The notes beneath the pieces were generated by a model. It saw only the letters and a program-made list of their open reading frames with translations, did no database searches and had not been told where the DNA came from. Both the position numbers and the translations under genes were made by a program. Source: Prescottella defluvii (GTDB lineage Bacteria > Actinomycetota > Actinomycetes > Mycobacteriales > Mycobacteriaceae). Taken from it: DNA of 64,000 nucleotides. Numbering within the stretch: the first letter of the stretch is position 1; every line of letters starts with the position of its first letter. Positions 7,484 through 23,105 of the stretch are shown here, in pieces. The stretch covers positions 868,001 to 932,000 of the forward strand of contig CP121458.1 in assembly GCA_029690005.1 (NCBI GenBank), read 5' to 3'.

Positions 7484-9167
7484 GTGTTCGAGAACAGTGA
7501 TACCGGAGTCGTGAGCCGCCGCGGACTACTGCGTGGCTCGGTGGTGCTGGCGGGGCCGGCGTCGCCGCCGCAGCCACCGGACGGGCGTCGGCCGCCGTTC
7601 CGGCACCCGGATTCGTCCATGGCGTCGCGTCCGGCGACCCGCTCCCCGACCGCGTGATCATCTGGACGCGGATCACGCCGTCCGGCGATGCGCTGCCGGG
7701 TTCGGGCGTGGGGCAGACGGTGTCGCTGAACTGGCAGGTCGCGACCGACCCGGGTTTCGCGAACGTCGTGCGTGCCGGCGCGGTGAACGCGGGTCCGGAC
7801 ACCGACCACACCGTCAAGGTCGACGTCACGGGGCTGCGTCCCAGTACCGGCTACTACTACCGGTTCACGGCGCTCGGTCGGACGTCGCCGGTCGGTCGCA
7901 CCCACACCGCGCCCGCGACCGACGCCGACCTCGGACGGCTGCGGTTCGGTGTGGTCTCGTGTTCCAACTGGGAGGCGGGCTACTTCGCCTCGTATCGGCA
8001 CCTGGCCGAGCGCGACGATCTCGACGCGGTCTTGCACCTCGGCGACTACATCTACGAGTACGGCCGCGGCGAGTACGGGGCGAAGTACGGCTCCGTCCGC
8101 CCGCACGATCCGGCGCACGACATCGTCTCGCTGGCCGACTACCGGATCCGGCACGCGCAGTACAAGACCGACCCGGACCTCATGGCGCTGCACGCGAAGG
8201 TGCCGTTCATCACGACGTGGGACGACCACGAGTCCGCCGACAACTCCTACGACGGTGGCGCCGAGAACCACGACCCGGCCACCGAGGGGACTGGGGTGCC
8301 CGCAAGGCGGCGTCCGCTCGCGCGTACTTCGAGTGGATGCCGGTGCGGGTCAACGGCTTCGGTCCGGACACTCCGCTCTACCGGCGGTTCCGCTTCGGCA
8401 ACCTCGCCGAGCTCTCCATGCTGGACCTGCGCACCTATCGGAGTGAGCAGGCCTCTTCCGGTGCCGGGTGGCGCAACGTCGATTCGCCCGACCGCACCAT
8501 CACCGGTCGTGCGCAGATGGACTGGCTCACCAGCGGAATCGTCACGTCGCCGACCCAGTGGAAGATCGTCGGCAACCCGGTGATGATCGCGCCGTGCGCG
8601 TTCCCGCCGCTCGAGGACCGCACCATGAAGGCGATCACCGACATGATCGGTCTTCCCGACGCCGGTATCCCGTACAACACCGACCAGTGGGACGGTTACA
8701 GCGCCGACCGCCGCCGGCTGTTCGACGCGATCACCTCGAACAAGGTCCGCAACACGGTCTTCCTCACCGGCGACATCCACACCTCGTGGGCGTGTGATCT
8801 GCCGGTGGACGCGGCGGACTACCCGGGTGCGGGAACGGTCGGGACCGAGTTCGTGGTCCCGTCGGTGACGTCGGCCAACATCGACGACTCGCTGAAGGTT
8901 CCGCCGCGCACCGTGAGCGTCGCGGCCGAGGAGGCGTTCAAGACGTTCAACCATCATGTGCGCTACGTCGAACTCGACTCCCACGGCTACGGCGTGTTCG
9001 AGATGAACAAGCAGGGGGCGCAGATGGACTGGTTCTTCGTCAACGATCCGGTCGATCCGCACGGTACCGTCCGGCACGCGGTGAGCTACCGGGTCGCCGA
9101 CGGCACCCAGCAGGCCCAGCCGGTCGCGACCCCGCTCGATCCGGCCGCCTACCGTCCGGGCGCGTGA
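7484..9167 (+). CDS. phoD: alkaline phosphatase D, Tat-exported (two frame breaks)
   Basis: PhoD-family phosphodiesterase/phosphatase, a calcium/iron enzyme acting outside the membrane. A twin-arginine signal [14 protein letters not shown] lies at the N-terminus, followed by the PhoD N-domain ([21 protein letters not shown]) and the metallophosphatase domain with [22 protein letters not shown] and a late GDIHTSWA. Two single-base losses, near 7550 and near 8288 (in GAGGGGACTGG), split it into three frames; repaired it has about 560 residues. The exact start is unclear: GTG 7484 and GTG 7511 both keep the Tat motif and neither has a good ribosome site. Confidence 0.88.
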
Positions 9168-9294
9168 GCGGTGCGTTGACTCGGATGTGCTGATCGGATC
9201 TCCACCCGGTCTCCACCCGTTGGTGGATCTGCCACGGGCTGCCGCGAAATAGCGTCGACGGTACTGAAGTTCGGTATCGGAGGAGGCGCGGAGC

Positions 9295-9816
9295 ATGGGT
9301 CCTGTGCAGATCGTCATCGCAGTTCTCGTTGTCGGATACATCCTGTATCGACGATTCGTCGGTAGCGTGCTCGAGGCGCGGCGCCTGCTGGTGCTGCCGC
9401 TGATCCTCGCCGCCGTGGGCGTCGCCGGTCTGGGCGACCTGCACGCGCTGTCGGCGAGCGGCGTCGCGCTGTTGGTCGCGGGTACCGCTGTGAGCGTGGT
9501 GCTCGGTCTCGTCCGCGGCGCGACGGTGCGCGTCGCGGACCGTGACGGGGTGGTGTGGATGCGCTACCGCGGGGTGACGGTTGCGCTGTGGGTGCTGACC
9601 ATTGCGGTGAAGATCGGTCTGGCGGTCGTCGCGCACGGTGCCGAGGCCTCGTCGGGGGCGGTGCTCTCGCTGGGCCTGGGCATCGTGGCCGAATCGGTGG
9701 TCATTCTCCTGCGCGCGCTGCGGCTCGAATCGTCGGTGCTGTGGCGGGCCTCGGGTCGCCGCACGGGCCGGCCCGTCGTGTTCGCGCCGGCGGCGCCGAA
9801 GTCCGACCGCTGGTGA
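9295..9816 (+). CDS. CcdC-like (DUF1453) membrane protein
   Basis: A 173-residue protein with about five hydrophobic helices: VQIVIAVLVVGYILYRRF, LLVLPLILAAVGVAGL, SGVALLVAGTAVSVVLGL, VALWVLTIAVKIGLAVV and a further one after residue 125. The YILYRRFVGSVLEARRLLVLPL start and the GATVRVADRDGVVWMRY loop fit the CcdC/DUF1453 family, whose function is unknown. It starts at ATG 9295 with GGAGGAGG at 9279-9286. The histidine kinase gene starts within about 40 bp on the same strand, so the protein may act with, or be sensed by, that two-component pair. Confidence 0.78.
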   Translation: MGPVQIVIAVLVVGYILYRRFVGSVLEARRLLVLPLILAAVGVAGLGDLHALSASGVALLVAGTAVSVVLGLVRGATVRVADRDGVVWMRYRGVTVALWVLTIAVKIGLAVVAHGAEASSGAVLSLGLGIVAESVVILLRALRLESSVLWRASGRRTGRPVVFAPAAPKSDRW

Positions 9817-9856
9817 CACACTGGGCGTCGTGGTAACCGGAGCACAGGACGGCGAC

Positions 9857-11011
9857 GTGGTGTCGTGGGCACCGTCGACGGTGGAACGGATCAGGGCTGT
9901 CGCCCGCACGGGCGTCACGGTCGCGGTGATCGTCGGCGCGGTGCTCACCGTCCGTCCGCTCGGCTTCCATGGACTCGGTCTCGTTCAACTGATCCTGCTT
10001 GTCGTCAACTCCGCTGTGTTGCTGATGCGTTCGATGCCCGAACGATTCATCCCGGAGCCGGCCGGGACCATCGGTGTGTGGGTCGGCGTGTTCGCGAGCG
10101 CGGCGCTGATGGCGTGCGATGCAAGCAGCGTAGCGGTCGTGTTCCCGTATTTCGTTGCCGGACAGGCTGGTTATCGCCTTCCTGTTCGACGCGCGGTCGC
10201 GGTCGCGGCGTCCGTGTCGGTGTGCTCGGCCGCTGCACTCGCGATCGCGGCGGACGTGGGACATCCAGCGATCCCGTGGTCCGTCGGCCTCTTCGCCGGC
10301 GTCCCCGTCGTCCTGGGCATCCTGAGGCGCGATCGCGTCGAGACTCTCCGCAGCACGCGGATCGCGTTGGAACAGTCCCGACGAGCGGCCGAGTCCGAGG
10401 CGCGGGAACGGGCGTTGGCCGAGCGAACCCGGATCGCCCGTGACATCCACGACGTCCTCGCGCACTCGCTCACCGGGGTGAGCATGCAGCTGCAGTTGGC
10501 GGATGCACTGATGGACCGGGACCGGATCGAAGAGGGCAGGCAGGCGGTCCGGAAGGCGGCGGGGATGGTGCGGGAGGGCCTGTCCGAGGCGCGCCGGGCG
10601 GTCACGGCGCTGCGGGAGGACAGCCTCCCGTTGGAGCAGACCATCGTGGCGATGCTCGAAACGGATCTCGCCGACGAACGGTTCGAGCTGTCCGGCTCGC
10701 CGAGACCGGTGGATACCGCCGTGTCGCAGGCCTTGGTGCGCAGCGTTCAGGAGGCACTGACGAACGCGCGCAAGCACGCGCCGGGCGCTCCGATCCGGCT
10801 GCAGCTCGTCTTCGACGACGCGGCGGTCGGCGTCGAAGTGGTCAACGGACCAGGCGCCGCGGATGTCGAGCTGTCCGCGAGCGGGAGTGGAATGGGGCTG
10901 GTCGGCATGCGCGAGCGTGCGGCACTGTTGGGCGGGACCGTCGAGGCCGGCCCGGTGACCGACGGCGACTACATCGGAGGTTGGCGCGTGCAGGTGAGGA
11001 TCCCGGGATGA
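9857..11011 (+). CDS. NarL-family sensor histidine kinase
   Basis: Membrane sensor kinase with four to five N-terminal hydrophobic helices (about residues 10-150), a coiled linker, and a HisKA_3 dimerisation domain whose phospho-accepting His lies in RTRIARDIHDVLAHSLTGVSMQL. The ATPase domain shows SVQEALTNARKHAP (N box) and GSGMGLVGMRERAALLGG (G box). There is no large extracellular sensor, as in LiaS/DesK-type kinases that respond to membrane state. I place the start at GTG 9857 with CAGGA 7 nt upstream; GTG 9830 is also possible. Its stop overlaps the regulator start (ATGA). Confidence 0.88.
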   Translation: MVSWAPSTVERIRAVARTGVTVAVIVGAVLTVRPLGFHGLGLVQLILLVVNSAVLLMRSMPERFIPEPAGTIGVWVGVFASAALMACDASSVAVVFPYFVAGQAGYRLPVRRAVAVAASVSVCSAAALAIAADVGHPAIPWSVGLFAGVPVVLGILRRDRVETLRSTRIALEQSRRAAESEARERALAERTRIARDIHDVLAHSLTGVSMQLQLADALMDRDRIEEGRQAVRKAAGMVREGLSEARRAVTALREDSLPLEQTIVAMLETDLADERFELSGSPRPVDTAVSQALVRSVQEALTNARKHAPGAPIRLQLVFDDAAVGVEVVNGPGAADVELSASGSGMGLVGMRERAALLGGTVEAGPVTDGDYIGGWRVQVRIPG

Positions 11012-11693
11012 CAGTGGAACCGGTGCGATTGGTTGTGGCCGATGACCAGGCAGCTGTCCGCGATGCGGTCGCGACGATGCTCGGCCTGGTGGACGATTTC
11101 GCAGTCTTGGCCCGCGCCGCCGATGGGGCGGAGGCGATAGAACAGGTGGACCGGCATCGACCCGACGTGGTGCTGATGGACCTGAGGATGCCCAGGGTCG
11201 ACGGCGTCGAGGCGACGCGAGTGATCACCGGACGTCACCCCGATGTCGCGGTGCTGGTGCTGACCACCTTCGACGACGAGGATTCGATCATCGACGCGCT
11301 CGGGGCGGGGCCAGGGGCTACCTGACCAAGGACGCGGGTATGGACGAGATAGCCCGCGCTGTTCGGACGGCCGCCGCCGGTCAGGTGGTGCTCGACCCCT
11401 CGGTCCAGCGGCGCCTGGTCGCTGCCGCAGCTGCCGGTCGGCAGGGTGCACCGGCTACTTCGGAACCATCGTCGCCGGAGTCGTTGCCGGCCGGACTGAC
11501 GCCACGCGAGCGTGAGGTCCTCGTCCTGATTGCCGAGGGACTCACCAACCGGGAGATCGCGGCGCGGCTGTATATCGGGGAAGCCACCGTGAAAACGCAC
11601 ATCAACAACCTCTTCGCAAAGGCACAGTTGCGGGACCGGGCGCAGGCAGTGCACTACGCCTTCCGCCACGGGCTGGTGGCACCCGCGGACTGA
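11008..11693 (+). CDS. NarL/FixJ-type response regulator (frame break)
   Basis: Partner of the upstream kinase, translationally coupled by a 4-bp ATGA overlap. The receiver has the acidic pocket VADDQAAV, the phospho-accepting Asp in VVLMDLRMPRVDG, and the conserved Lys in YLTKDAG. The C-terminal LuxR-type HTH reads LTPREREVLVLIAEGLTNREIAARLYIGEATVKTHINNL. The frame breaks at the G4 run 11307-11310; a fifth G restores ALGAGARGYLTKDAG and gives about 228 residues, the normal size. It is probably a complete transcription factor. Confidence 0.9.
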
Positions 11694-11859
11694 CCGCGCG
11701 GCCTGCGCCGCTGGGCTTGGCCACCGCCCGAATTCGCCGCGGTGGCTGACCTGAGCGACTCGCAAACACTCCCCCGCGCACGCGTTGTGGCCGGCACCCT
11801 CGTTGCGGGTGTCGGCTGCAACGATCTTCGGGCGATGCGCTGGTCGAGGACAGCGTCTT

Positions 11860-13101
11860 TCAGGCTGCGCGTGGTCCGGCGCGGCCTCGGGCGGGGATCG
11901 GCTTCCGGTGAGGATCGACCGATGCGGGTGGGGTGAACCACGGCCGTCGGTCGGCCCCGATCTGCACTTGCCAGTGTGAGTGGTGCAGGAGTCGGTGATG
12001 GTATCGGCAGAGTAGGACGAGGTTGTCGAGGTCGGTGGGGCCTCCATCGGCCCAGTGGTAGATATGGTGGCCTTCGCAGTGGGCGGGTGGTGCGCCGCAT
12101 CCGGGGAAGGCGCAGCCGTGGTCGCGGGCGACGAGGGCACGGCGCTGTTTCTTCGACACGGTGCGGGTGGTGCGCCCGAGGTGGAGCGGGATCCCGTCGT
12201 CCATCACGATCGGGGTGAGGTGGCAGTCGCACGCGAGGCGTCGGGCGGACTCGATGGTGAGTGGCCCCAGGTGAGGGGTACACGCGATGTCGGTGTCGCC
12301 GAAGAGGTCTGGATGGTTGTCGCGCTGCGTCTGCCCGTGCTCGGCGTCGGTGCGCGCGAGATCCTTGGCGTTGACGTGGAGCGAGAGGTGTGGGCGTTCG
12401 CCGCCCTCGAGGGGTGCGGCGCCGGAGTTCAGGTACTGCCGGAGGATCTCGGTGAAGGCGTCGGCGCGGCGCTGTGCGGGTGTGCGGCCACCTCTGGAAT
12501 CGTCGACCGGGTTGCGCGGCTTGGTCAAAGACGAGAGGGCGGTGAGGAGCATTTCGCCTGTCTCGGAATCGAAATCGCCCTTGACGGCAACTCGTCCGTT
12601 GAGCGTCTTGGAGGCGTGGAACTCGCTGCGGTCGGCGTCCTCGCTCGGCGGGAGGTGGTCGGATTCGAAGATCCGCTCGAGTCGCGAGATGCAGGTACGT
12701 ACTGTCATCGTGGTGGAGGTGGGTCCGGTCGCGCTGTCCAGCAGCACATCCCGACACGGACCCAGTGCATCGTCTGGCATGCCGCGTGGTGGTTGTTCGC
12801 AGAAATTGGTGATCAAGGTGGCGTGCTCGGCGGAGATCCGGCCGTCGTGGAAGGCGTCGGCGATCTCGGGTTCGCGGCGCAGCGCCTTCCCCAAGGCGAG
12901 GATCCGGGCGGCGGCCGGCACTTCCAGCAGGGTGTTTGCGGCGAGCCAGAGTTTGACGCTGCGGAAGCCGAGGGTGTCGAACGAGACTGCGCGCTCGTCG
13001 ATTTCGGCAACAGCTGCGACCCGGAGGGCTTCGAGTCGCTCGATCTCGCGAGAGATGTCGAGGGTGGCCGTCAGCAGTTCGGATTCGGGGAGTGAACGCA
13101 C
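11860..13101 (-). CDS. DUF222/HNH endonuclease, 13E12-repeat type, SOS-controlled
   Basis: Actinobacterial 13E12-type protein: an N-terminal DUF222 region (SRILxALxREPEIADAFHDGRISAEHA type) and a C-terminal HNH motif, RDHGCAFPGCGAPPAHCEGHHIYHWADGGPTDLDNLVLLC. It is a putative nuclease of unknown biological role, usually present in many copies. The open frame allows GTG 13101, but ATG 13160 is the likely real start. One extra C in the C5 run 13148-13152 would put ATG 13160 in frame and add MDPGGLNESGVAATTLRVDD, and the promoter with its embedded LexA box predicts transcription starting at that ATG. Confidence 0.88.
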   Translation of the reverse strand: MRSLPESELLTATLDISREIERLEALRVAAVAEIDERAVSFDTLGFRSVKLWLAANTLLEVPAAARILALGKALRREPEIADAFHDGRISAEHATLITNFCEQPPRGMPDDALGPCRDVLLDSATGPTSTTMTVRTCISRLERIFESDHLPPSEDADRSEFHASKTLNGRVAVKGDFDSETGEMLLTALSSLTKPRNPVDDSRGGRTPAQRRADAFTEILRQYLNSGAAPLEGGERPHLSLHVNAKDLARTDAEHGQTQRDNHPDLFGDTDIACTPHLGPLTIESARRLACDCHLTPIVMDDGIPLHLGRTTRTVSKKQRRALVARDHGCAFPGCGAPPAHCEGHHIYHWADGGPTDLDNLVLLCRYHHRLLHHSHWQVQIGADRRPWFTPPASVDPHRKPIPARGRAGPRAA

Positions 13102-13166
13102 GTCGTCGACGCGCAGCGTGGTGGCTGCGACACCTGATTCATTGAGTCCCCCGGATCCATGCAGTC

Positions 13167-13195
13167 AGCTTAGTTCGAACTGGTGTTCGAGTCAA
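13167..13195 (-). promoter_or_regulatory. promoter with perfect LexA/SOS box
   Basis: On the minus strand TTGACT (13195-13190), 17 bp, TAAGCT (13172-13167). The spacer carries TCGAACACCAGTTCGA (13190-13175), a perfect match to the mycobacterial SOS box TCGAAC-N4-GTTCGA. The ATG at 13160 lies 6 nt past the -10, so repression by LexA and a leaderless mRNA are both expected. Confidence 0.88.
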
Positions 13196-13281
13196 TGATT
13201 CTCGGGCTCCTGAAGCTTTCGATCCCGGCGCGGACCGGGAGGGGCTGGCGGTGATGTCCGGGTAAGGAAATGCCGCTGGAG

Positions 13282-13734
13282 TCAATCCAGGCCCGCGGCA
13301 GTCTGCCCGTCCAACGCGGCGGAAATCCGTCCGCCCAGGGCGGCGATGGTATCCCTGTCGCCAGGCGTCCCCGGTTCCCAGGGCAGCACCAGCCGGTCAC
13401 TGGTCTTGTCGACATACCGCGGGATCACATGCAGATGGAAATGGAACACCGTCTGCCAGGCATCGGCGCCGCAGCAGTTGAGTATGTTCACTCCGTCGGC
13501 GCCGAACTCCGTGACTGCCGCCTTCGCGATCCGTTGCGCGGCCAGGGTCACGTCCGTCAGGTCATCGGCTGGAATCTCCAACAGGTCTTTGCTGTGTCGC
13601 TTGGGAATGACCAGTATGTGACCGTCCGACGCGGGGTTGATGTCCATGAACGCGTACGTCGTGTCATCCTCTGCCACTTGGACGCTCGGGACGCTACCGG
13701 AAACGATGCCGCAGAACAGGCACTGATCGCTCAT
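13282..13734 (-). CDS. HIT family protein
   Basis: A 150-residue histidine-triad hydrolase. The triad is FHFHLHVIPR (His-x-His-x-His with hydrophobic spacers) near residue 100, and the N-terminal CLFC pair with the following AFMDINPASDGHILVIPKRH is typical of the Hint/HIT branch that cleaves AMP from nucleotide phosphoramidates or diadenosine polyphosphates. It starts at ATG 13734 (MSDQCLFCGI). No operon partner is visible; the 470 bp upstream hold the helR control region on the other strand. Confidence 0.93.
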   Translation of the reverse strand: MSDQCLFCGIVSGSVPSVQVAEDDTTYAFMDINPASDGHILVIPKRHSKDLLEIPADDLTDVTLAAQRIAKAAVTEFGADGVNILNCCGADAWQTVFHFHLHVIPRYVDKTSDRLVLPWEPGTPGDRDTIAALGGRISAALDGQTAAGLD

Positions 13735-13943
13735 GACTACCCAAGGTAGCTTGCGCCTGGAGGCGGGCGGGTGCTTCCGGTCGACATCGTGAAAGGCACT
13801 GCGGGAAGGATTGATTCGTATCGCTCTCGCGCTGGTGGCGGCGTCGTAACCAATCCCCGACTGGTTCAGGGGAACGCTGATCATGCTGCTCCCGTGTAGC
13901 TGGCGAGACTTCAGCGGTCCCGCTAGTGGTTGCTCGGCACGAA

Positions 13944-13973
13944 GCTCATCTGCACAGCGCTCATCTGCACAGC
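13944..13973. repeat. 15-bp perfect tandem duplication
   Basis: GCTCATCTGCACAGC occurs twice in a row in the non-coding stretch 13735-14211. No function is apparent. Apart from this and the RAE below, I see nothing else in that stretch. Confidence 0.6.
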
Positions 13974-14056
13974 GCCGACGCGGAGAGATGCCCGATGTGG
14001 GCGAGAAGCGGGAGGGGAAACGCACTCCTTCCCACTACTAACTTATAGCGGAGTGG

Positions 14057-14076
14057 GGGGCTTGCGGCAAGGCCCC
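14057..14076 (+). promoter_or_regulatory. rifamycin-associated element (RAE) upstream of helR
   Basis: GGGGCTTGCGGCAAGGCCCC, an imperfect inverted repeat, matches the RAE known upstream of rifamycin-inducible genes such as helR and rph in actinobacteria. It lies 135 bp before the helR start in the same orientation. A weak -10-like CAGAAT follows at 14087-14092. Confidence 0.88.
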
Positions 14077-14211
14077 GGTGATGCCGCAGAATCGCTGACC
14101 TGAGTCGAAACCCGTGGCCGTGACTGCGCTGCTGGACGTGGTCATCCGAGAGGGGCCTCCAGCATTCACGACAAGCGCCCGAATCGCGGAGCAGGGGAAA
14201 GTGAGGGCAAG

Positions 14212-16448
14212 TTGTCAGCTCGAGAATACGAGGACGAATTGCGGGCCGAACAGGAGTATGTGACGGGGCTCTACGGACGCCTCGACGCCGAGCGCGCGCG
14301 AGTGAAGGACCGGTACGGCGCGGCGTTGCGGAGCCCTGTCGACGTCACGAACGGCGGGACCATGGTGGAGCGGGACGCCGAGGTTCGCACGCTGGCCAGG
14401 GAGATGCAGCGGCTCGACGTGGCGGACCACGGGCTGTGCTTCGGCCGGTTGGACGCCGTGTCCGGTGATTGTTCCTACATCGGCCGGATCGGCATCTTCG
14501 ACGATGAGCGCGACTTCGAACCGCTGCTCCTCGACTGGCGGGCGCCGGCCGCGCGTGCGTTCTACGTGGCCACCGCGGCAAGCCCCGAGGACATGCGTCG
14601 ACGTCGGCAGTTCCACAGTCGGGGGCGTCAGGTGGTCGAGTTCACCGACGAGGTCCTCGGCCGACCCGACGGCACGGACCCGGACAGCCGGGGAGATTCG
14701 GCTCTGCTCGCCGCCGTCAACGCGCCGCGCGGCGAAGGGATGCGCGACATCGTGGCGACGATCCAGGCGGAACAGGACGAGATCATCCGACTCGAGCACT
14801 CGGGGGTGCTGGTGATCGAGGGCGGTCCTGGCACCGGGAAGACTGTCGTCGCCCTGCACCGCGTCGCGTACCTGCTGTACACGCAGCGCGAGCAGATGGA
14901 ACGCCACGGGGTGCTCGTGGTCGGTCCCAATTCGGCCTTCCTGCGGCACATCGATCGTGTTCTCCCGTCGCTCGGCGAGACGAACGTCGTGTTCACGACC
15001 ACCGGTGACCTCGTGCCGGGCCTGCACGTCACCGCGGAGGACACCTCGGACGCCGCGCGGCTGAAGGGTTCGCTCCAGATCCTGGACGTACTCGCCGCGG
15101 CGATCGCCGATCGGCAGCGGCTGCCCGAGGACCCGATTCCGATCGAATTGTCGGGTGTTGCACTGCAGATCGACAGCGAGACCGCGGCGTGGGCGCGGGA
15201 GGAAGCGCGCGCCAGCGGGCGACCGCACAACGAGGCCCGCGCGGTTTTCCGGGAGATCGTCACGTACGTGCTCACCGAGCGTGCGATCGGCCGGATCGGC
15301 AAGGGCTGGCTGTCTCGTTCGGATCGCAACGCGTGGGAGCAGATGCGGACCGAGCTGCTCGAGGAGCTCGCACAGGACGCGAACTTCACCACCGCGCTCG
15401 ACGCACTCTGGCCGATCCTGTCCCCGGATTCAACACTTGCAGAGCTCTATTCGTCTCGGGAGCGGTTGAGCGCGGCGGGCGCCGATCGGGCGCTGTGGCG
15501 CGCCGACGGCGACGCCTGGACGGTCTCGGACGTTCCGCTGCTCGACGAGCTGGTGGAACTGCTGGGCCGGGACCAGCGCGTCGACCGGGCCGCCGAGCGG
15601 GAACGGAAGGCCCGCACCGAGTACGCCGCAAACGTGCTGGACAGCCTCGTCAGCCGCGCAGACCACATGGAGGACGACGAACTCCGCCTGTTCGCCACCG
15701 ACGTGTTGGACGCCGAAGGCCTGGCCGAGCGGTTCGTCGAGCGTGATACCCGTGACCTCGCCGAACGCGCTGCAGCGGACCGGGACTGGACCTACCGGCA
15801 CGTCGTGGTCGACGAGGCGCAGGAACTGTCCGAGATGGACTGGCGTGTGCTGATGCGACGTTGCCCGAGCAAGTCGTTCACCATCGTCGGCGATCTCGCG
15901 CAGCGTCGGTCGGCGGCGGGCGCTACGTCGTGGGACGCGATGCTCGAACCGTACGTGCCCGGCCGCTGGGTCTACCGGTCGCTGTCGGTGAACTACCGCA
16001 CCCCGGCCGAGATCATGGCGGTCGCCGCGGCGCTGCTCGCCGAGTTCGCGCCCGGAGTCCAGCCACCGGATTCGGTTCGCGGGTGCGGATCCAGCCCTGG
16101 TCCAGACGCGTTACTGCTGACGAACTGCTCTCTGACATAGAAGAATTCGAACTGGACGAAGCGGGCCGCGAAGGAACCAGCGTCGTGATCGGGCCGCCGG
16201 ATGTGCCGGGCGCGGTGCCGGCCTCGGAGACGAAGGGGCTGGAGTTCGACGCCGTCCTGGTGGTGGAGCCTGAACGCATCCTCGCGGACGGCCCACGCGG
16301 TGCGGCCGAACTCTATGTCGCTCTCACCCGCGCCACCCAACGTCTCGGCGTTCTACACCGAGGGCCGCTGCCGCAGGCGCTGACCGGTCTCGCCGAACCG
16401 GCCGCGAACAGCGCCTCGCCGGAAGTAGAGTGCGGGCGGGGCGGGTAG
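14212..16448 (+). CDS. helR: HelR, RNA polymerase-associated rifamycin-protection ATPase (3' frame break)
   Basis: UvrD-like superfamily 1 ATPase of the HelD/HelR group, which binds RNA polymerase; HelR displaces rifamycins from the enzyme. An N-terminal coiled coil (residues 1-75, EDELRAEQEYVTGLYGRLDAER) would enter the secondary channel. Walker A is GGPGTGKT near residue 204, Walker B is VVVDEAQELSEMDW, then SVNYRTPAEI, and the last motif ELYVALTRATQRLGVL. One base missing near 16080 splits off the end; repaired length is about 745 residues. It starts at TTG 14212. The RAE upstream strongly supports the HelR assignment over a general UvrD helicase. Confidence 0.92.
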
Positions 16449-16467
16449 CGATCAGCGAGGGGGAGCA

Positions 16468-17106
16468 GTGTCGACGGTGAGGTCTGTGGTCATCGGTGTG
16501 GTGGCGGCCGCGAGCGTGATCGTGGTGGCAGGCTGTGGCGGTGATACCTCTGCACCGCAGTCTGATTCGCGGACGATCGCCCGTGCCGCCCCCACGCCGG
16601 CCGACGTCACCGGTCGGATGCAGGTCGGCCCGACTCCCCCACCGCCGTCCACCCTCAGACCCGTCCCCGCCGACGAGCTGTCTCCACTCGACGGGGTCGT
16701 CGCGCCGACGATCGCCGTCGACGACGTGCGGATCGAGGTCGACGCCGACACCGGAGCCGCGCGGGTCGTCTACCGGTTCAGCGGCGCCGGAGTTCCCTTC
16801 TGGAAGGTGGGTTACGTCGCAGAGGCCGTCCCGCACGGTGGCGGTCCGAGTCTCGTCGTCGCCGGGCAGGCGATCATGCAGATCGACATCATGGGTACCG
16901 CGAAGCCCGCACGGGACCTCTATTCCGCCGCAACGCCATTGGCGGGACCGGAAGACTCCGGCGTGGTCCAGCTCTTCCTGCTGCCCGACAGTCGAGAAGA
17001 ATCGAATGGAGTCGCCCAGTCCTTCGTCGGTCTCCGTGGCGGGCCGAGGCCGTTCGAGGTAATCGCCGTCGAGGATCCACCCCAGCTGGTCGTCGAGATT
17101 CACTGA
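16468..17106 (+). CDS. lipoprotein with AMIN-like domain
   Basis: A 212-residue secreted lipoprotein: the signal peptide VVIGVVAAASVIVVAGCGGD ends in a lipobox with Cys near residue 24, then a Pro/Thr-rich linker to about residue 65. The C-terminal domain (IAVDDVRIEVDADTGAARVVYRFSG, then GVVQLFLLPDSREE, ending PPQLVVEIH) resembles the AMIN-like domain of mycobacterial and rhodococcal lipoproteins of unknown role. It starts at GTG 16468 with GAGGGGGA at 16457-16464, 19 bp after helR, so it could be co-transcribed with it. Confidence 0.8.
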   Translation: MSTVRSVVIGVVAAASVIVVAGCGGDTSAPQSDSRTIARAAPTPADVTGRMQVGPTPPPPSTLRPVPADELSPLDGVVAPTIAVDDVRIEVDADTGAARVVYRFSGAGVPFWKVGYVAEAVPHGGGPSLVVAGQAIMQIDIMGTAKPARDLYSAATPLAGPEDSGVVQLFLLPDSREESNGVAQSFVGLRGGPRPFEVIAVEDPPQLVVEIH

Positions 17107-17217
17107 GGCGGTGTCTCGAGCGAGACATGCTGCGAACACTTATTTCTCGACCATCTCCGTCCTGCCCTAGGATCATCGGGGAAGAATCCGATCATCGCTC
17201 ACAGAGAGACGTGTGAC

Positions 17218-17827
17218 GTGTCAGCCAATCCCGACCCCGACGATCTACTCCTCAGCGACGACGAGCGTTTGCACGCGTTGAACGCGATCAGCGAGCACTA
17301 TGCGGCGGGGCGTTTGGATTCGAGTGAGTTCTACGATCGTTCGGGTGCGATCGCTTCGGCGCGCACACTCGACGCGATGCGCGACTCGTTCCGCGGCCTT
17401 CCCGGCGGTCTGCCACTCGACGTGATCGACGGGCACATTCGGAAGCTCGCAGAGGGCGGTGAACTCGAGTCGACCGGAGCCGGCGCCCCGTCGTGCCGCC
17501 GGCGGCTCGCAGCGACGAATCCGATCTGTCCGCGCTGCGGAAGCGCGGTGGGTTGGTCGAGTCGCTCGACGGGGTGATCGTCGGTGTCACCCTCGTGGTG
17601 TTCCTCGTTCTGCAGGTGATCGTCGACTGGGACTACGCGTGGATCGTCTGGCCCTCGTTGATCGTGACGCTCAGCATCCCCGGATGATCCTCAAGTACAG
17701 CGACGCCGACGAGGAGATCTACGAGGAACTGAAGGAGGAGGAGGCGAAGTCGCGCAAGAAGCGCCTCAGAGAGGCCGCCGAACGGATCCACGAACTCGAG
17801 GCCAAGCGCGACCCCGACAAGACCTGA
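17218..17827 (+). CDS. DUF1707 plus 2TM-domain membrane protein (two frame breaks)
   Basis: The N-terminal DUF1707 (LLLSDDERLHALNAISEHYAAGRLDSSEFYDRSGAIASARTLDAM) is followed, after repair, by two hydrophobic helices (VIVGVTLVVFLVLQVIVDW and WIVWPSLIVTLSIPG) and a charged C-terminal coiled tail (EEIYEELKEEEAKSRKKRLREAAERIHELEAK). The three pieces lie in successive frames, each shifted by one base near C4 runs at about 17487 and 17683; adding a base at both gives about 203 residues. The layout is frequent in actinobacteria; its function is unknown. It starts at GTG 17218. Confidence 0.78.
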
Positions 17828-17861
17828 TCGTCCGTGTCCCGTTCCGGCTACATTCGAGGGC

Positions 17862-18458
17862 ATGAGCGCACAACCCGTCGCCCGTCGTCGCCGTCTCGCC
17901 GTATGGATCGCAGCTGTGGTCGCGGTGCTCGCGGTGGCGGCGGGCGCGGTGCTGTGGTGGGCGCCCTCGCGGTACCTGCCGTGGGACACGGCGTCCTTCC
18001 CCGACGTCGACACCTCGACGCTGACGGCGACCCAGGCCAAGGTGATCGGCGTGCTCGAGAACGAGCACCGCGAACAGCGGCCCGGCACCTTCTACTCCGA
18101 CGGCGTCAAGGAGCCGTGGTGCGCCAACTTCGTCAGCTGGGTCATGCGTGAGGCCGGTGAACCGCTCGCGAACCCGAACTCCGGGTCGTGGCGCATCCCC
18201 GGCGTCTACACGCTGCAGGAGTACTACGAATCCAAGGACCGGTTCGAGCCGGTGGGCAACGACTACAGACCCAAGGTCGGCGACGTGGTGTTGTACGACA
18301 ACGAGTTCGGGATCGGTCAGCACACCAACTTCGTGGTCGCGGTCGACGGTGACACCGCCACGACGGTCGGTGGCAACGAGCTCGGGAAGATCCGCGTGCA
18401 CAACCTCGACTGGCAGTCGGACTCCGCGGTCGTCGGGTTCGGGCGGCTGGATTCCTGA
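17862..18458 (+). CDS. membrane-anchored CHAP-domain protein
   Basis: A 198-residue protein with one N-terminal membrane segment (LAVWIAAVVAVLAVAAGAVLWW) and an outward CHAP domain. Its catalytic Cys is in VKEPWCANFVSWVMREAG and the His in IGQHTNFVVAVDGD, so it is probably a peptidoglycan amidase or endopeptidase. It starts at ATG 17862. A -10 box TACATT at 17849-17854 lies 7 nt before the start, suggesting leaderless transcription. It converges with the membrane-protein fragment on the other strand, 23 bp away. Confidence 0.85.
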   Translation: MSAQPVARRRRLAVWIAAVVAVLAVAAGAVLWWAPSRYLPWDTASFPDVDTSTLTATQAKVIGVLENEHREQRPGTFYSDGVKEPWCANFVSWVMREAGEPLANPNSGSWRIPGVYTLQEYYESKDRFEPVGNDYRPKVGDVVLYDNEFGIGQHTNFVVAVDGDTATTVGGNELGKIRVHNLDWQSDSAVVGFGRLDS

Positions 18459-18481
18459 GCCGCTCGGGACGGACGTATCCG

Positions 18482-18913
18482 TCAGCCCTGCATGCTCAGC
18501 CGGGCGCACAGATCGCGCGGCGCGTCCACGTGCAGGCTCACGCCGGTGACCATTCGCGTCTCGTGCTCGACACCGACGGGCGCGTCGAAGTCGATGTCGA
18601 TCACGGTGCCGTCCGGGCCGGGCAGGTAGAGCCGGTCGCCGTGGATGCCGGGTGTGGTGTGCTCGAACCGGCGGGTGGGAACGGCGCGGACGATTCGACT
18701 GCGGTCCACGGAGAGCACGGTGTCGCGGCCGGATCGGAGCGTCAGCGCGTCGGACGTGACCAGGTGGGGATGGACGACGCGTCCGGCGAACCAGTTGGCC
18801 CCGGCAACGATCGAGATCACGGTGATCACGAGGAGCGTCGCGCGCAGCCAGGCCCAGGGGACGAGCAGGTGCACCGCCACCGCCTCGACCAGGCTCGCGA
18901 CGAGGAACGCCAT
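18482..18913 (-). CDS. membrane protein, N-terminal part missing
   Basis: The open frame codes for two membrane segments (AFLVASLVEAVAVHLLVPW and ATLLVITVISIVAGANWF) and a soluble C-terminal part (VTSDALTLRSGRDTVLSVDRSRIVRAVPTRR). I recognise the pattern from actinobacterial integral membrane proteins of unknown role that carry an extra N-terminal region ending in FGYTAG. That motif is present just upstream (about 18946-18920) but runs, with a frame change, straight into the MerR gene; no start codon or ribosome site exists there. ATG 18913 is only the first available start. The 5' end is lost or rearranged, in the cell or in the assembly. Confidence 0.6.
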   Translation of the reverse strand: MAFLVASLVEAVAVHLLVPWAWLRATLLVITVISIVAGANWFAGRVVHPHLVTSDALTLRSGRDTVLSVDRSRIVRAVPTRRFEHTTPGIHGDRLYLPGPDGTVIDIDFDAPVGVEHETRMVTGVSLHVDAPRDLCARLSMQG

Positions 18914-18947
18914 CGGGATCGCGAGCGTGCCCGCGGTGTACCCGAAG

Positions 18948-19760
18948 GTCGAAGTTCCCCAAGTCGTCGAGGATCCCGAGCCGCTGCATCACCCGGGTGA
19001 GGATCGCGCCCTGTGCGGGGTCCGGGATCACGTCGGCGATCGGCATGGCGGGCTTACTGCCGGGACGGATCTCGGACTGCCAGTGTTCGAGAACTCCGGA
19101 GTCGACCAAGAGGACCTGGACGGCATCCTGCATTGCCTCCGAGAGTGATTCGATCTCGTCGGCGCATTCCTTCGGGCTATGTCCACGGATCGCGGCGAAT
19201 CTGCGGTACAGCGCCACGATCCGTTCGCGAGACTGTGGATCGGAGAATAGGCGCGTCGCGGATGCGAAGAACTCTTCGGGGGCCGACCCGGAGATCGCGA
19301 CCAGTTCCCAGGCATCCCGCTCGCGCTCGAACTCGGCCCGCACCGCCGGATCGGCTTCGGCGGTGATCAGTTCGGCGAAGACCAGCGCGAGACCCGACGG
19401 GAGCGGCGACACCGGCCGGCCGGCGCGGTGGTCGTCGAGCATCTGCTGCAGTCGGGCTCGCTTCGCCGCGAGAACGCGTTGCTCGGCATCGAGGGTGTCG
19501 ACCAGTGCTGTGAGATCGGCCTCGAGGTCGTCGGCGGCTGCGCTGTCGGTCGTCGCGGACACGATCGACGAGACCGAGCCGAGGGGTACCCCGGCCCCGG
19601 CGAGCCATCGCACCCGCATGAGCCGCACCAGATCCGCAAGGTTGTATTCGCGGTACCCGTTGGCCAGCCGCCGGGGTTCGTCGAGCAGGCCGAGCCGGTG
19701 GTAGTGACGGATCGTGCGCGGCGTGGTGCCGGCCGCCTGTGCGATGTCGCTGATACGCAT
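18948..19760 (-). CDS. MerR-family regulator (3' end fused to next gene)
   Basis: The N-terminal winged HTH reads MRISDIAQAAGTTPRTIRHYHRLGLLDEPRR, followed by a coiled dimerisation helix (DALDAEQRVLAAKRARLQQMLDDHRAG) and an all-helical C-terminal part of about 170 residues, as in TipAL-like or MerR regulators with ligand domains. It starts at ATG 19760 and is probably leaderless. After LGILDDLGNFD (about 18948) the frame runs on into the downstream membrane protein without a proper stop, so the true end is not visible. It lies just downstream of a glutamine synthetase gene on the same strand but has its own promoter. Confidence 0.82.
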
Positions 19761-19766
19761 AGCCTC

Positions 19767-19797
19767 AGGATGAACTATGACGTTGCGTCATAGTCAA
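19767..19797 (-). promoter_or_regulatory. MerR-type promoter with 19-bp spacer and palindrome
   Basis: On the minus strand TTGACT (19797-19792), a 19-bp spacer, CATCCT (19772-19767), 6 nt, ATG. The spacer region holds a perfect 21-bp palindrome with 9-bp arms, ACTATGACG-TTG-CGTCATAGT (19774-19794). A lengthened spacer with a centred dyad is the hallmark of MerR-activated promoters, here most likely autoregulatory. Confidence 0.85.
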
Positions 19798-19806
19798 GCG
19801 GTGAAA

Positions 19807-21179
19807 TCAGAACGCCCACCGCAGTGCCGCGGCGATCTCCTCGTCCGTCGAGTTCGCGAACCGTGCGATCTCCGCGCGGTGGACGTCGACGATGGTGGCC
19901 GACAGCTCCGTACCGAACGACTCGGTGAGTATGGTGTCGGCCTCGAAGGCGTCGGTGGCCTCGGCGAGTGAGCTTGGCAGACGGTCGATTCCGCGACGTC
20001 TGCGTTCCTCGTCGGTGAGCGACGCCGGGTCGACGTCCACGAGGTCCGGCAGTGCGGCGCCTGCGCGCATGCCCGCGAGGCCGGCGAAAAGTAGCGCGCC
20101 GATGCACAGGTAGGGGTTGGCCGACAGGTCCAGCACCTTGACCTCGAGATTGGCGGCCCGCTCTTCTTCTCCCCGCTGCCCGTCACCAAACGCAGTGCGG
20201 TTTCCCGGTTCTCGTGTCCGCATGCCCGGAACGGCGCCGACCACTGGCCCGGCACCAGTCGCAGATAGCTCGCCACCGACGCCGCTCCCACCGCGAGCAG
20301 TCCCGGCAGGTGGTCGAGGATGCCTCTGGCGAAGGCCTCCGCCGTCGCCGTCAGCCCGCACGGGCCGTCGCCACCGCTGTGCAGGTTCCGGCCCTCGCGC
20401 CACAGCGACAGGTGGACGTGTCCGCCGTTCCCGACGCCGTCCGCAGTCACCTTGGGGGAGAACGACACCCGCATGTCGTGGCGGAGAGTCACGGCGCGAA
20501 TGGTCTCGCGTACGAGCACGAACGTGTCGGCGGCGCCGAGCGGGTCTTCGGCGGCCACCGACAGTTCGAACTGCCCGGACGCGTACTCGGGGTGGATCTG
20601 CTCCACCCGGACGCCCTGCTGTCGCAGCGCGGTCACCAACTCGGCCAGGTAGTCCGACTTCTCGACCACTCTCGTATATCCGTACGCCGGCCCGCGTGTT
20701 GCGGGGACGAAGTCGTCGGCGTCGTGCCCGACGACCCATTCGGTCTCGATCGCAGCCTTCGCGGTCAGCCCCTCGTCGGCGAGCAGCGCGACGGCCAGGC
20801 GGACGACCCCGCGGGCATCCTGCGGGTGCAGGTCCCCGTCCTGCGTGTAGCGGTCGACGGGTGCCCACGCCCAGCCCGGCTGCGCGGCGAGCACCGTCAG
20901 CCGCCCCAGATCCGGGATCAGTCGCAGGTCGCCGACCGGGCCCCCGGCGTAGCGGCCGGCGACGATCGTGTCGTCGGGGGTGAACGCGTCGAACACCGGC
21001 GATGCCCCCACACCCCACGCGGCGGCGTGTTCGAGGCGGTCGATCGGGACGGCCTTCGTGCGCACCACGCCGCTGTTGTCGACCCACGGCAGCGCGATCG
21101 CGACGACGCCGCGCTCGGCGAGGTCGCGGGTCAGCCGCGCGGCCTCGAGCGCCCGAGCTTCGCGTTCGTGCCGATCCAT
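19807..21179 (-). CDS. glutamine synthetase-like ligase, FluG/NodGS C-half type (frame break)
   Basis: GS-fold ATP-dependent ligase joining ammonia or an amine to a gamma-carboxylate. Active-site segments are seen: EQIHPEYASGQFELS, NGGHVHLSLW, and RACGHENRETALRLVTGS. The frame breaks near 20175 at a G4 run; one base restores GEEERAANLEVKVLDLSANPYLCIGALL and the normal C-terminus, about 458 residues. The late Arg/adenylylation-loop pattern of housekeeping GlnA is absent, so a specialised substrate is likely. It is divergent (35 bp) from an amidohydrolase; these two domains are fused in fungal FluG and plant NodGS. Confidence 0.85.
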
Positions 21180-21214
21180 CGCATCTCCCTCACGCGGGCC
21201 CGGTCAGCGGCAGA

Positions 21215-22398
21215 ATGGCGGGTGTGGCGCCTTTCCCAGACGATACGCCGCGGCACTCGGGCGGAGATTCGATTGCGGAGATGGTCGACGCGCTGCCCCT
21301 CGTCGACCACCACTGCCACGGTGTCGTGCGCGAAACCCTCGATCGAACGGCCTTCGAATCGCTGCTGTGCGAGGCCGACGGGCCCGGGCCGTGGCACGGC
21401 ACCCTGTCGACACCCAGGTCGGATTCACGGTGCGCCGGCTGTGCGCCCCGGTCCTCGGCCTCCCGCCGCACGTCGGCCCGGACGAATACCTCGAACGACG
21501 CGTCGAACTCGGCACCGACGAGGTGACCCGGCGCCTGCTGCGGGAGACCGGAATATCCGAATTCCTCGTCGACACAGGGTTTCTGCGTGACCGGTTGACG
21601 ACGCCGGACCAGCTGGCGGCGTACTCCGGGGCGCGTGCGCACGAGGTGGTGCGGCTCGAGCCGATCGCCGAGGAGGTGATCGCCGTGCGCGGGGCCGGCA
21701 CCTTCGCGGACGCGTGCCGCGGCAGGCTGGCCGACGCATCCCGCACCGCGATCGCCTTCAAATCCGTTGCGGCCTACCGGGTCGGTCTCGATCTGGCGCC
21801 GGAGCGCCCGTCCGATGCCGCCGTGTTCACCGCGGCGGCGCGGTGGGCGTCGGAGATCGCCGCCGGGGGACCGGTGCGGTTGGCCGACGAGACCCTGATC
21901 CGCTTCCTGATCTGGACGGCCGTGGACCTCGGCCTGCCGATCCAGTTCCATGTCGGCTACGGCGACGCGGACACCGACCTGGCACGCGCCGACCCGCTGC
22001 TGCTGACGCCCCTGCTGCGGGCCACCGCGGGCCGCGGGGTTCCGGTCATGCTGCTGCACAGCTACCCCTTCCAGAGGCACGCCGGCTACCTCGCGCAGGT
22101 GTTCGACCAAGTGTTCGTCGACGTCGGTCTCGCGATGCAGAACGTCGGCGGTGGCGGAGCGATCCGCGTCCTCGCGGAGCTCCTGGAGCTCGCGCCGTTC
22201 GGGTCGGTGCTCTTCTCGACGGACGGCTGCGGCCTCCCGGAGTTGTTCCACGTCGCCACCGTGCAGTTCCGGACTGCACTGGCCAAGCTCCTCGAAAAGG
22301 AAGTGGGACAGGGAAAGTGGTCGAGGGATGACGCCGAGCGGGCCGCGCGGATGATCGCCGGTGACAACGCACGTCGCGCCTACCGGCTCGCAGCCTGA
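21215..22398 (+). CDS. amidohydrolase, FluG/NodGS N-half type (frame break)
   Basis: TIM-barrel metal-dependent amidohydrolase (Amidohydro_2). The metal motif LPLVDHHCHGV lies near residue 32; later metal or active-site segments are QFHVGYGDAD, MLLHSYPFQRHAGYLA and VLFSTDG. One base missing near 21405 joins the first 65 residues to the remainder (DTQVGFTVRRLCAPVLGL), giving about 394 residues. ATG 21215 is the only start that keeps the N-terminus. Its divergent neighbour is the GS-like ligase, so the pair probably opposes or completes the metabolism of one gamma-glutamyl or related amide compound. Confidence 0.83.
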
Positions 22399-22406
22399 CG
22401 CCTGGC

Positions 22407-23003
22407 TCAGCCGCTGAGCGCACCCGCGCGAGCCGCGGCGACTGCGCCGGCAGCGGCCCGATCGCCCACGGCGGCGTCGACGGGCATGTCCGCCACGAGA
22501 AGTCGGTAGTAGATCGGCGCGGCGACGGCGGCGAGCAGGTCTGCGGGCGACACGTCGGCGGGGATCTCTCCGCGCTGGACGCCGCGTTGGACGATGACGT
22601 CTGCGAGGGCGTACCGCTTGGCATAGAAGGTGCGCTTGAACTCGGCGATCTCCGGCGTACGCACGGCGTCCGAGAACAGTGTCCGCACGAGCGTCCGTCC
22701 CGGGTTGTTGGTGACGAGGTCGACGATCGACCGAGCCATCGCGCGGAGGTCGGACTCGAGCGATCCGGTGTCGGGTATCGGGACCGTGATCTCCGAGAGG
22801 TCGACCACGGCCTCGGTGACAAGTTGCGTCAACGTTCCCCAGCGCCGATAGATCGTCGTTTTGTGTACGCCGGAACGGGTTGCCACGTCCTCGATCGTCG
22901 TTGCCGCGAATCCCCGCTCCGCCAGTTCGGACAGCACCGCCTCGAACACGGCGTCACGGACGCGGGCACTTCGCCCGCCGGGGCGCTGGGAAGGCGAACT
23001 CAC
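22407..23003 (-). CDS. TetR-family repressor (SGVHKTT recognition helix)
   Basis: A 198-residue TetR regulator from GTG 23003. The DNA-binding domain spans residues 12-58 with TTIEDVATRSGVHKTTIYRRW; the C-terminal domain is of the type with PDTGSLESDLRAM and NNPGRTLVRTLFSDA. It is divergent from the alpha/beta hydrolase at 23106. Two copies of the dyad GCAAC-N5-GTTGC lie in the 102-bp gap and are very likely its operators. The second TetR at 27025 has nearly the same recognition helix and the same dyad upstream. Confidence 0.88.
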   Translation of the reverse strand: MSSPSQRPGGRSARVRDAVFEAVLSELAERGFAATTIEDVATRSGVHKTTIYRRWGTLTQLVTEAVVDLSEITVPIPDTGSLESDLRAMARSIVDLVTNNPGRTLVRTLFSDAVRTPEIAEFKRTFYAKRYALADVIVQRGVQRGEIPADVSPADLLAAVAAPIYYRLLVADMPVDAAVGDRAAAGAVAAARAGALSG

Positions 23004-23017
23004 GCCGGGAATCTTAT

Positions 23018-23034
23018 CGCAACTCTCCGTTGCG
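23018..23034. promoter_or_regulatory. TetR operator copy 1, CGCAAC-N5-GTTGCG
   Basis: Perfect inverted repeat CGCAACTCTCCGTTGCG, 15 bp upstream of the TetR start. Confidence 0.72.
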
Positions 23035-23066
23035 TTAACCGTCGGCACGTGCTTGACTGCGCTAAT

Positions 23067-23081
23067 GCAACTCAGTGTTGC
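23067..23081. promoter_or_regulatory. TetR operator copy 2, GCAAC-N5-GTTGC
   Basis: GCAACTCAGTGTTGC, same half-sites and spacing as copy 1, centred 48 bp from it and just upstream of the hydrolase ribosome site. Confidence 0.72.
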
Positions 23082-23105
23082 GTTTATGGATTTTGAGGAG
23101 ACGTC

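What the first reader, a model, noticed from the sequence alone, without database searches (positions are those of the whole stretch)
14057..16448. Rifamycin-associated element drives a HelR orthologue
The 20-bp GGGGCTTGCGGCAAGGCCCC upstream of a HelD-like ATPase matches the RAE known before rifamycin-inducible genes. HelR is known to remove rifamycins from RNA polymerase in Mycobacterium abscessus and Streptomyces. This predicts inducible intrinsic rifampicin tolerance in this organism. No rph, arr or rox gene is visible in the window, so HelR may act alone here.
Basis: partly seen in the sequence, partly recalled or inferred. Interest (0 to 1): 0.75.

Follow-up and report, generated by a model that had tools for sequence, protein, structure and literature searches.

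The report
Rifamycin-inducible HelR gene with composite promoter
[quoted passage not shown] it is one of two such elements in the genome, and comparison across actinobacteria suggests the element is a larger two-sided promoter than described.

Summary
An exact rifamycin-associated element (RAE, 14057-14076) lies 135 bp before a gene that passes NCBIfam's HelR/HelD cut-offs and has the HelR primary-channel loop. RAE-helR pairs are already described in Rhodococcus equi, Nocardia and mycobacteria, so this is a new member of a known kind.

Two corrections. First, HelR is probably not alone: the genome has one other RAE with the same flanks, just before a rifampin monooxygenase (rox) gene; no arr, rgt or convincing rph was found. 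Second, helR, rox and a second helD are all split between frames here but open in relatives, which points to assembly indels.

New here: the RAE is the centre of an ~80-bp conserved block, with a sense -10-like hexamer (CAnAAT, +21..+26) and an antisense one (TAnnnT, -21..-26) at equal distance from its centre. Spacing is nearly fixed at helR, rox and other RAE genes across the class. I propose that the palindrome is a shared -35 for two mutually exclusive polymerase sites. How rifamycin tips the balance is unproved; a rifamycin-binding regulator and tandem sense promoters remain live rivals.

The parts
14025..14106 (+). Composite RAE promoter region (-41 to +40 around the RAE centre at 14066)
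   Evidence: Conserved columns in 52 named helR loci and 138 RAE loci; spacing test
14057..14076 (+). Rifamycin-associated element (19-bp palindrome 14057-14075 plus one C)
   Evidence: Exact match; 2 of 8 core-like places in the genome carry the composite flanks
14062..14067 (+). TTGCGG inside the RAE, proposed -35 of the sense promoter (19 nt before 14087)
   Evidence: Sequence; PMC10719064 section 9 says the RAE overlaps the -35 of promoter 2 in M. smegmatis; assignment here is inference
14087..14092 (+). CAGAAT, sense -10-like hexamer at +21..+26 from the RAE centre
   Evidence: CAnnnT at this place in 48 of 52, 118 of 138 and 38 of 38 loci
14065..14070 (-). TTGCCG on the minus strand inside the RAE, proposed -35 of the antisense site
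   Evidence: Follows from the palindrome; inference
14040..14045 (-). TAAGTT on the minus strand, antisense -10-like hexamer at -21..-26
   Evidence: TAnnnT at this place in 45 of 52, 123 of 138 and 36 of 38 loci
14032..14033 (-). Conserved CC (GG on the minus strand), proposed antisense start, 7 nt after the antisense hexamer
   Evidence: CC in 44 of 52, 112 of 138 and 26 of 38 loci; that it is a start site is inference
14212..16140 (+). helR, first ORF: homology to about residue 629 (Walker A GGPGTGKT, DWR, VDEAQ, primary-channel loop)
15861..16448 (+). helR, ORF in another frame that holds the C-terminal ~103 profile positions (from about 16086)
13282..13734 (-). Divergent HIT-family gene, ATG at 13734 (322 bp from the RAE)
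   Evidence: its relation to the antisense site is not tested

Best explanation
This is a rifamycin-inducible helR. Sub-inhibitory rifamycin raises transcription through the RAE; HelR, a class II HelD motor, then enters drug-arrested RNA polymerase, puts its primary-channel loop beside the drug pocket and releases drug and DNA. In this genome helR is half of a two-gene RAE regulon; the other half is a rifampin monooxygenase, so target protection and drug destruction are probably induced together. At the DNA level the RAE is the middle of an ~80-bp two-sided promoter: its palindrome offers TTGC(C/G)G to both strands, with a weak sense -10 (CAGAAT) on the gene side and a better antisense -10 (TAAGTT) on the other, so only one polymerase can sit at a time. 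Shown here: sequence, family, loop, genome regulon, conserved geometry. From the literature on other species: induction and drug release. Inferred: that both hexamers are promoters and that rifamycin shifts use from the antisense to the sense site. The split reading frame is most likely an assembly indel.
For: Exact RAE. HelR cut-offs passed; 89-94% identity to RAE-linked orthologues of two congeners and 47-49% to the paralogue without RAE. Closest solved structure is M. smegmatis HelD. Loop and acidic tip present. RAE with 0-1 mismatch before 10 of 10 in-genus orthologues, this one included. Second RAE before rox in this genome and in 7 of 14 genomes. Of 138 RAE loci over order and class, 77 precede a helR/helD-type gene, 24 rox-type, 14 rph-type, 4 rgt-type, 2 arr-type. 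Equidistant hexamers with near-fixed spacing. helR, rox and helD-2 are broken in this genome and open in the relatives compared.
Against: No expression or MIC data. The mutually-exclusive-promoter part has a direct difficulty: in B. subtilis the convergent two-promoter alarm lost inducibility when the promoters were moved close enough to exclude each other (PMC12802891 section 48, read), and a polymerase arrested by drug on the antisense site would also block the RAE. The upstream hexamer can also be read on the sense strand (CAnnnT at -27..-22 in many loci; xAnnnT in 37 of 38). As a whole the two flanks are not more dyad-symmetric in register than at some shifts (0.302 and 0.303 at shift 0, up to 0.292 and 0.303 at shifts 5-6); only a few positions are. 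The sigma-70 scan of 13900-14300 found no promoter at its thresholds (spacers of 16-18 nt only). 28 of 80 named helR loci have no RAE within 4 mismatches in the 500 bp searched (2 of 80 had a shorter stretch), so RAE control is not universal. The loop tip here is DE plus one extra residue rather than ED, or has lost the D, depending on gap placement.
Confidence: 0.8

Rival explanations
1. The RAE is the operator of an unidentified rifamycin-responsive transcription factor that binds the palindrome as a dimer; the conserved flanks are simply the promoter it controls.
For: This is the reading suggested in print (PMC10719064 section 9; PMC12802891 discussion passage). Arms GGG/CCC beyond the TTGC core are conserved. 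The 4/16 pair of the palindrome varies independently, as half-sites read one by one would.
Against: The two texts name no regulator; it would have to be shared by much of the class. It does not by itself explain a TAnnnT on the minus strand at exactly the mirror position of the sense -10.
Confidence: 0.4
2. Two sense promoters in tandem: a P1 with -10 CAAnnT at -27..-22 and P2 with -10 CAnAAT; drug inhibits P1 and relieves interference on P2, as reported for rpoB in M. smegmatis.
For: Two sense starts are reported for M. smegmatis helD (PMC10719064 section 9). A-26 and T-22 also fit a sense hexamer (xAnnnT in 37 of 38 mycobacterial loci).
Against: The published P1 start is ~20 bp before the RAE; in the M. 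smegmatis-like locus L255 that fits TACCCT at about -41, not the conserved hexamer (my reading), and no sense TAnnnT register is conserved (at most 2 of 38). A sense P1 does not explain why position -21 is A in 88-95% of loci or why the distance to the RAE is fixed in 46 of 49 and 123 of 127 significant cases.
Confidence: 0.25
3. helR is a real pseudogene in this strain: the frame break is biological and no full HelR is made.
For: The two parts lie in different frames.
Against: rox and the second helD of the same genome are split too, while the orthologues compared in other genomes of the genus are open; assembly completeness is 79 against 99-100 for the other 13.
Confidence: 0.07
4. The RAE works as an RNA hairpin (attenuator) in the leader.
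For: The palindrome could fold; no Rfam family matches 8000-24000, so it would be new.
Against: No compensatory pairing: at the most variable pair (4/16) Watson-Crick pairs are 10 observed against 7.5 expected of 52, and 26 against 24.1 of 138; at pair 1/19 35 against 34.9 of 52. No terminator-like site.
Confidence: 0.03

Closest known systems
Potential HelR of Rhodococcus equi 103S (REQ_15310), Rhodococcus sp. 008 and Nocardia farcinica (PMC8655204, figure legend read as a passage)
   Same: RAE-linked class II HelD, with a second helD in the same genome
   Different: Another species of the genus: 94% and 89% to the nearest congeners, 76-78% to the R. hoagii/P. equi records; one-residue longer loop tip
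M. smegmatis HelD (PDB 6yxu and others) and M. abscessus MAB_3189c
   Same: Class II HelD with Walker A and primary-channel loop, RAE before the gene
   Different: Loop tip E484-D485 in M. smegmatis; DE plus one residue, or E-L, here. No arr found in this genome; M. abscessus has arr (PMC10719064 section 7)
S. venezuelae RAE regulon, rox and helR (through PMC10719064 section 7)
   Same: The same two kinds of gene under an RAE in one genome
   Different: Probably another HelR lineage: the second HelR model of NCBIfam, NF041254, scores 415 of its 750-bit cut-off here; that this model stands for the Streptomyces type is my guess
B. subtilis helD/pps two-promoter rifampicin alarm (PMC12802891)
   Same: Opposed promoters before a helD-type gene; the antisense one stronger (proposed here)
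   Different: There the promoters are convergent, 39 bp apart, and inducibility was lost when they were moved to exclude each other; here they would be divergent and share the RAE

Membership tests
HelR (class II HelD) | Passes the curated HelR/HelD family cut-off | tested here: met
   NF041465 1174 of 1051 bits and NF041258 1161 of 1100 with the first ORF alone
HelR (class II HelD) | Motor motifs (Walker A, VDEAQ, DWR) | tested here: met
   GGPGTGKT, VDEAQ and DWR identical in 89 of 89 aligned proteins
HelR (class II HelD) | Primary-channel loop with acidic tip | tested here: met
   Loop aligned with the M. smegmatis-like L255; tip MEDDELRLF against MDDEDHLL, acidic but one residue longer. 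Function of this tip untested
HelR (class II HelD) | Full-length protein encoded | tested here: inconclusive
   Two frames in this assembly; open in 9 of 9 in-genus orthologues outside this genome
HelR (class II HelD) | Releases rifamycin from polymerase and raises tolerance | not testable with these tools
   -
Rifamycin-associated element | 19-bp palindrome upstream of the gene | tested here: met
Rifamycin-associated element | Confers induction by rifamycins | not testable with these tools
   Known for other species only (PMC10719064)
B. subtilis-type convergent two-promoter alarm | Two convergent promoters spaced so that both can be occupied | tested here: not met
   The hexamers point away from the RAE and would share it
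Rox/Iri rifampin monooxygenase (second RAE gene, outside the window) | Family model match over the length of the protein | tested here: met
   Two pieces cover NF033145 1-168 (292 bits) and 160-471 (603 bits) of 472; neither piece alone passes the cut-off of 800

The most novel reading that the evidence does not exclude
The RAE is not only a regulator's operator but a shared, palindromic -35 element of two divergent, mutually exclusive promoters, with the stronger one pointing away from the resistance gene; rifamycin is sensed by RNA polymerase itself through the changed balance of the two, without a dedicated drug-binding regulator, across the class Actinomycetes.
Probability: 0.35. Interest if true: 0.8.

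Novelty: new member of a known kind. Interest (0 to 1): 0.45.

Why it matters
The RAE-helR-rox pair fits an established picture and predicts intrinsic, inducible rifamycin tolerance in a Prescottella-like bacterium. The wider point is the sensor: a 2026 paper says the precise mechanism of the RAE and its potential regulator remains to be elucidated (PMC12802891, passage read). The conserved geometry around the RAE gives a sharp prediction (an antisense start at one named place, falling under drug) that a single 5'-end mapping experiment in a laboratory Streptomyces can confirm or kill.

Tried and rejected
RNA-hairpin reading of the RAE: disfavoured, no covariation; no Rfam match in 8000-24000. 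My first thought that the rox RAE shows compensatory change fell for the same reason: position 4/16 varies freely.

'TATAGC as sense -10': disfavoured, position -17 is C in 89-94% of loci where a sense -10 would need T.

Rph in this genome: weak hits at two loci. At one, a frame piece gives 489 bits to the PEP synthase model NF005057 and 80 to Rph. At the other, the N-terminal piece gives 335 bits to PEP synthase and 266 to Rph and the C-terminal piece 111 to a PRK08296 model and 58 to Rph. No score reaches its cut-off, both loci being in pieces; PEP-synthase-type proteins fit best. My first scan of the N-terminal piece used the wrong strand and was repeated. Arr: none. Rgt: none. The genome was not searched with the rox family model, so further rox copies without RAE are not excluded.

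M. smegmatis itself was not identified among the 396 genomes of that genus searched; the nearest, 97% to a 199-residue query, was used.

Singleton genes after RAE sites (16 of 138): some look like wrong-frame ORFs or chance sites; only L186 was scanned with family models.

Rows dropped: L203 and L206 of 140 RAE loci for register problems. 4 of 60 mycobacterial stretches were dropped because the best match lay too near an end, and 18 of the remaining 56 had no RAE (6-8 mismatches) and were left out of the 38. 13 of 140 loci whose ORF-based orientation disagreed with the hexamer, plus ties (2), were set by the hexamer where it differed, so set B leans slightly towards it; set A and the mycobacterial set are oriented by the protein. 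Some mycobacterial loci are the same species as set A loci. mis-oriented minus-strand loci and were replaced. L013 and L014 were fetched and not used.

Full report
1. What is there. The 20-mer is exact at 14057-14076 and far beyond chance in the window. The gene behind it starts at TTG 14212, 135 bp further on, behind GAGGG, and its first ORF passes the curated cut-offs of NF041465 and NF041258. Phmmer against the PDB finds M. smegmatis HelD first (989 bits) and the 6wvk chain, B. subtilis HelD, far behind (96 bits). The C-terminal ~103 profile positions are in a second ORF in another frame.

2. Is the broken frame real? The genome is a 5-contig assembly with completeness 79, against 99-100 for the 13 other genomes of the genus searched. 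Its second HelD is matched in at least four consecutive stretches, the last with stops inside, while the 13 rows of the matching paralogue in the other genomes (47-49% identity) have open frames of 761 aa or more. Its rox is in two frames, and in 6 of 6 relatives the two halves are in one frame (frame arithmetic on the coordinates). helR is open in 9 of 9 in-genus orthologues outside this genome (frames of 729 aa or more). I conclude assembly indels, and mended nothing.

3. Which organism. Among the 80 named loci kept, the closest helR is that of Prescottella agglutinans (89%), against 76-78% for the P. equi/R. hoagii records (the tool says records of the own or a very near genome may be left out). 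The nearest unnamed congener has 94%. So the organism is a Prescottella, or a near relative, that is probably not R. equi.

4. HelR or another HelD? In-genus orthologues linked to an RAE are 72-94% identical to it; the paralogue is 47-49%, and all 18 RAE sites of the genus are accounted for by helR (10), rox (7) and one other HelD, so none belongs to the paralogue. The primary-channel loop is present. The tip reads MEDDELRLF where M. smegmatis has MDDEDHLL (E484 and D485 by counting along; their role is stated in PMC10719064 section 8, read). Exactly this form is found in 3 of 86 other rows, L104 and L105 among them. Whether the acid pair is swapped (DE for ED) or half lost (EL) depends on where the gap is put.

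5. The regulon of this genome. With a permissive core (CTTGNNGCAAG) there are 8 places in the genome; 2 of 8 carry both flanking hexamers described below: helR and C1:2855585-2855604. Counts of short patterns alone mean little: the reversed control patterns matched as often or more often, though the flank-bearing pattern GGNNCTTGCNGCAAGNNC had 2 places and no control match here. The second site is a perfect 19-bp palindrome that differs from the helR RAE at three of 20 positions. On its minus strand the next gene is a rifampin monooxygenase: pieces match NF033145 1-168 and 160-471 of 472, with 292 and 603 bits. Arr: no match. Rgt: no match. Rph: only sub-threshold pieces that fit PEP-synthase-type models better. 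RAE sites in the genus: 11 of 14 genomes; 10 have RAE-helR; 7 have RAE-rox, all 7 also having RAE-helR; one (G008) has the RAE before a HelD only 36-40% identical.

6. RAE over the phylum. Pattern GGNNCTTGCNGCAAGNNC: 189 of 298 genomes of the order and 197 of 394 of the class; some genomes are in both samples, the listings of sites are capped, and the reversed control also matches in a number of genomes, so some sites are chance. From 140 loci I kept 138. Clustering of the downstream ORF gave helR/helD-type 77, rox-type 24, then clusters of 14, 4 and 2, 16 singletons, and 1 without an ORF. One representative each identified the clusters of 14 as rph-type (752 bits, partial sequence, cut-off 999), of 4 as rgt-type (616 bits, under its 800 cut-off) and of 2 as arr (134 bits, cut-off 130). 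This agrees with the published view of the RAE and is not new.

7. The composite element. Column conservation around the RAE extends from about -41 to +40 in both sets. Set A was chosen by protein similarity: 52 of 80 named helR loci with an RAE within 4 mismatches in the 500 bp upstream (48 within 3); 0 of 80 control stretches inside the genes reached 4, the best being 5. Consensus in set B: tccccgCCa.tttcAAc.TATAgCgcacc - RAE - gggtcgtGcCGCAgAaTCgccggcCg. The same layout is at the rox RAE of this genome.

8. Geometry. Sense hexamer at +21..+26: CAnnnT in 48 of 52 (A), 118 of 138 (B), 38 of 38 (mycobacterial set). Minus-strand hexamer at the mirror place -21..-26: TAnnnT in 45 of 52, 123 of 138, 36 of 38, with 18, 19 and 15 different middle triplets. 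By base composition about 0.7% of places would do this; among 89 registers scanned on both strands in the mycobacterial set no other exceeded 2 of 38. A leave-one-out profile test puts the upstream block at its expected offset in 46 of 49 and 123 of 127 loci that score significantly (of 52 and 138 tested), and the downstream block in 49 of 49 and 126 of 127. Compared as a dyad, the most symmetric single positions are 22 and 26, the A and the final T of the two hexamers, followed by 17; but the flanks as a whole are not more alike in register than at shifts of 5-6. In mycobacterial loci where the rest of the upstream block has changed, these positions stay. A conserved CC at -34/-33 (44 of 52, 112 of 138, 26 of 38) falls where the antisense transcript would start with GG. 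In 15 of 18 set B loci where the neighbouring CACT is shifted by one, the CC stays in place.

9. What this means. I read it as a sense promoter (TTGCGG-19-CAnAAT, as the published P2 with -35 in the RAE) and an antisense promoter of the same geometry (TTGCCG-19-TAnnnT). They share the palindrome, so they exclude each other. The antisense site has the better -10 (T at the first position; the sense one keeps C) and an A-rich discriminator. The sense reading of the upstream hexamer (CAnnnT at -27..-22) cannot be excluded. It leaves A-21 and the fixed distance unexplained, and the published M. smegmatis P1 start (~20 bp before the RAE) fits another hexamer in the near relative L255 (my reading). 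How drug turns the balance is open: the B. subtilis model (PMC12802891 sections 47-49, read) needs promoters that do not exclude each other, so it cannot be carried over as it stands. A regulator that binds the palindrome is the main alternative.

10. Literature. Seen: PMC10719064 (abstract, sections 7-9), PMC12802891 (abstract, sections 47-49, passages), PMC8655204 (passages, section 16), PMC11464796, PMC13246000, PMC10194278 and PMC7283461 (passages). The primary RAE and HelR papers (Spanogiannopoulos 2014; Surette 2022; Hurst-Hess 2022) are not held and are cited through these. Seven searches of the held library listed nothing whose title, abstract start or passages that I saw describe conserved flanks or an antisense promoter at the RAE; most subscription papers are outside that library, so this is weak evidence of novelty.

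11. Verdict. A sound observation of a known kind, with a side-claim that fails (HelR alone) and a missed frame break. The new, testable part is the geometry around the RAE.

Noticed in passing
G000:C1:2855585-2855604 (L003:1501-1520), outside the window: Second RAE of the genome, a perfect palindrome, just before a rifampin monooxygenase gene split between two frames; in one frame in 6 of 6 relatives that have the pair.
   Followed up: yes
G000:C1:3404732-3406957, outside the window: Second HelD gene matched in at least four stretches, one with stops; the paralogue is open in the 13 other genomes of the genus.
   Followed up: partly
14212-16140, around residues 482-494 of the protein: The loop tip of HelR in the window and in 3 of 86 other aligned rows is one residue longer and reads DDEL rather than DED.
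   Followed up: partly
L275 (G008:C1:4585714-4585731): A congener without the close helR has the full RAE composite before a HelD only 36-40% identical, as if the element stayed with or moved to another HelD lineage.
   Followed up: partly
L186 (G380:C61:3823-3841): RAE-like composite, with one extra base in the downstream spacing, before an alpha/beta hydrolase; not one of the five RAE gene families found here.
   Followed up: partly
L297-L356 (mycobacterial helR upstream stretches): 18 of 56 evaluated stretches have no RAE within 5 mismatches, so many mycobacterial helD genes may be outside RAE control or start elsewhere.
   Followed up: no
17766-19760 and 19794-21179, minus strand: A 664-aa MerR-type ORF whose family matches cover only the first ~110 residues, and a glutamine-synthetase-type ORF matching only to about residue 338, look like further frame breaks of the assembly.
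   Followed up: no
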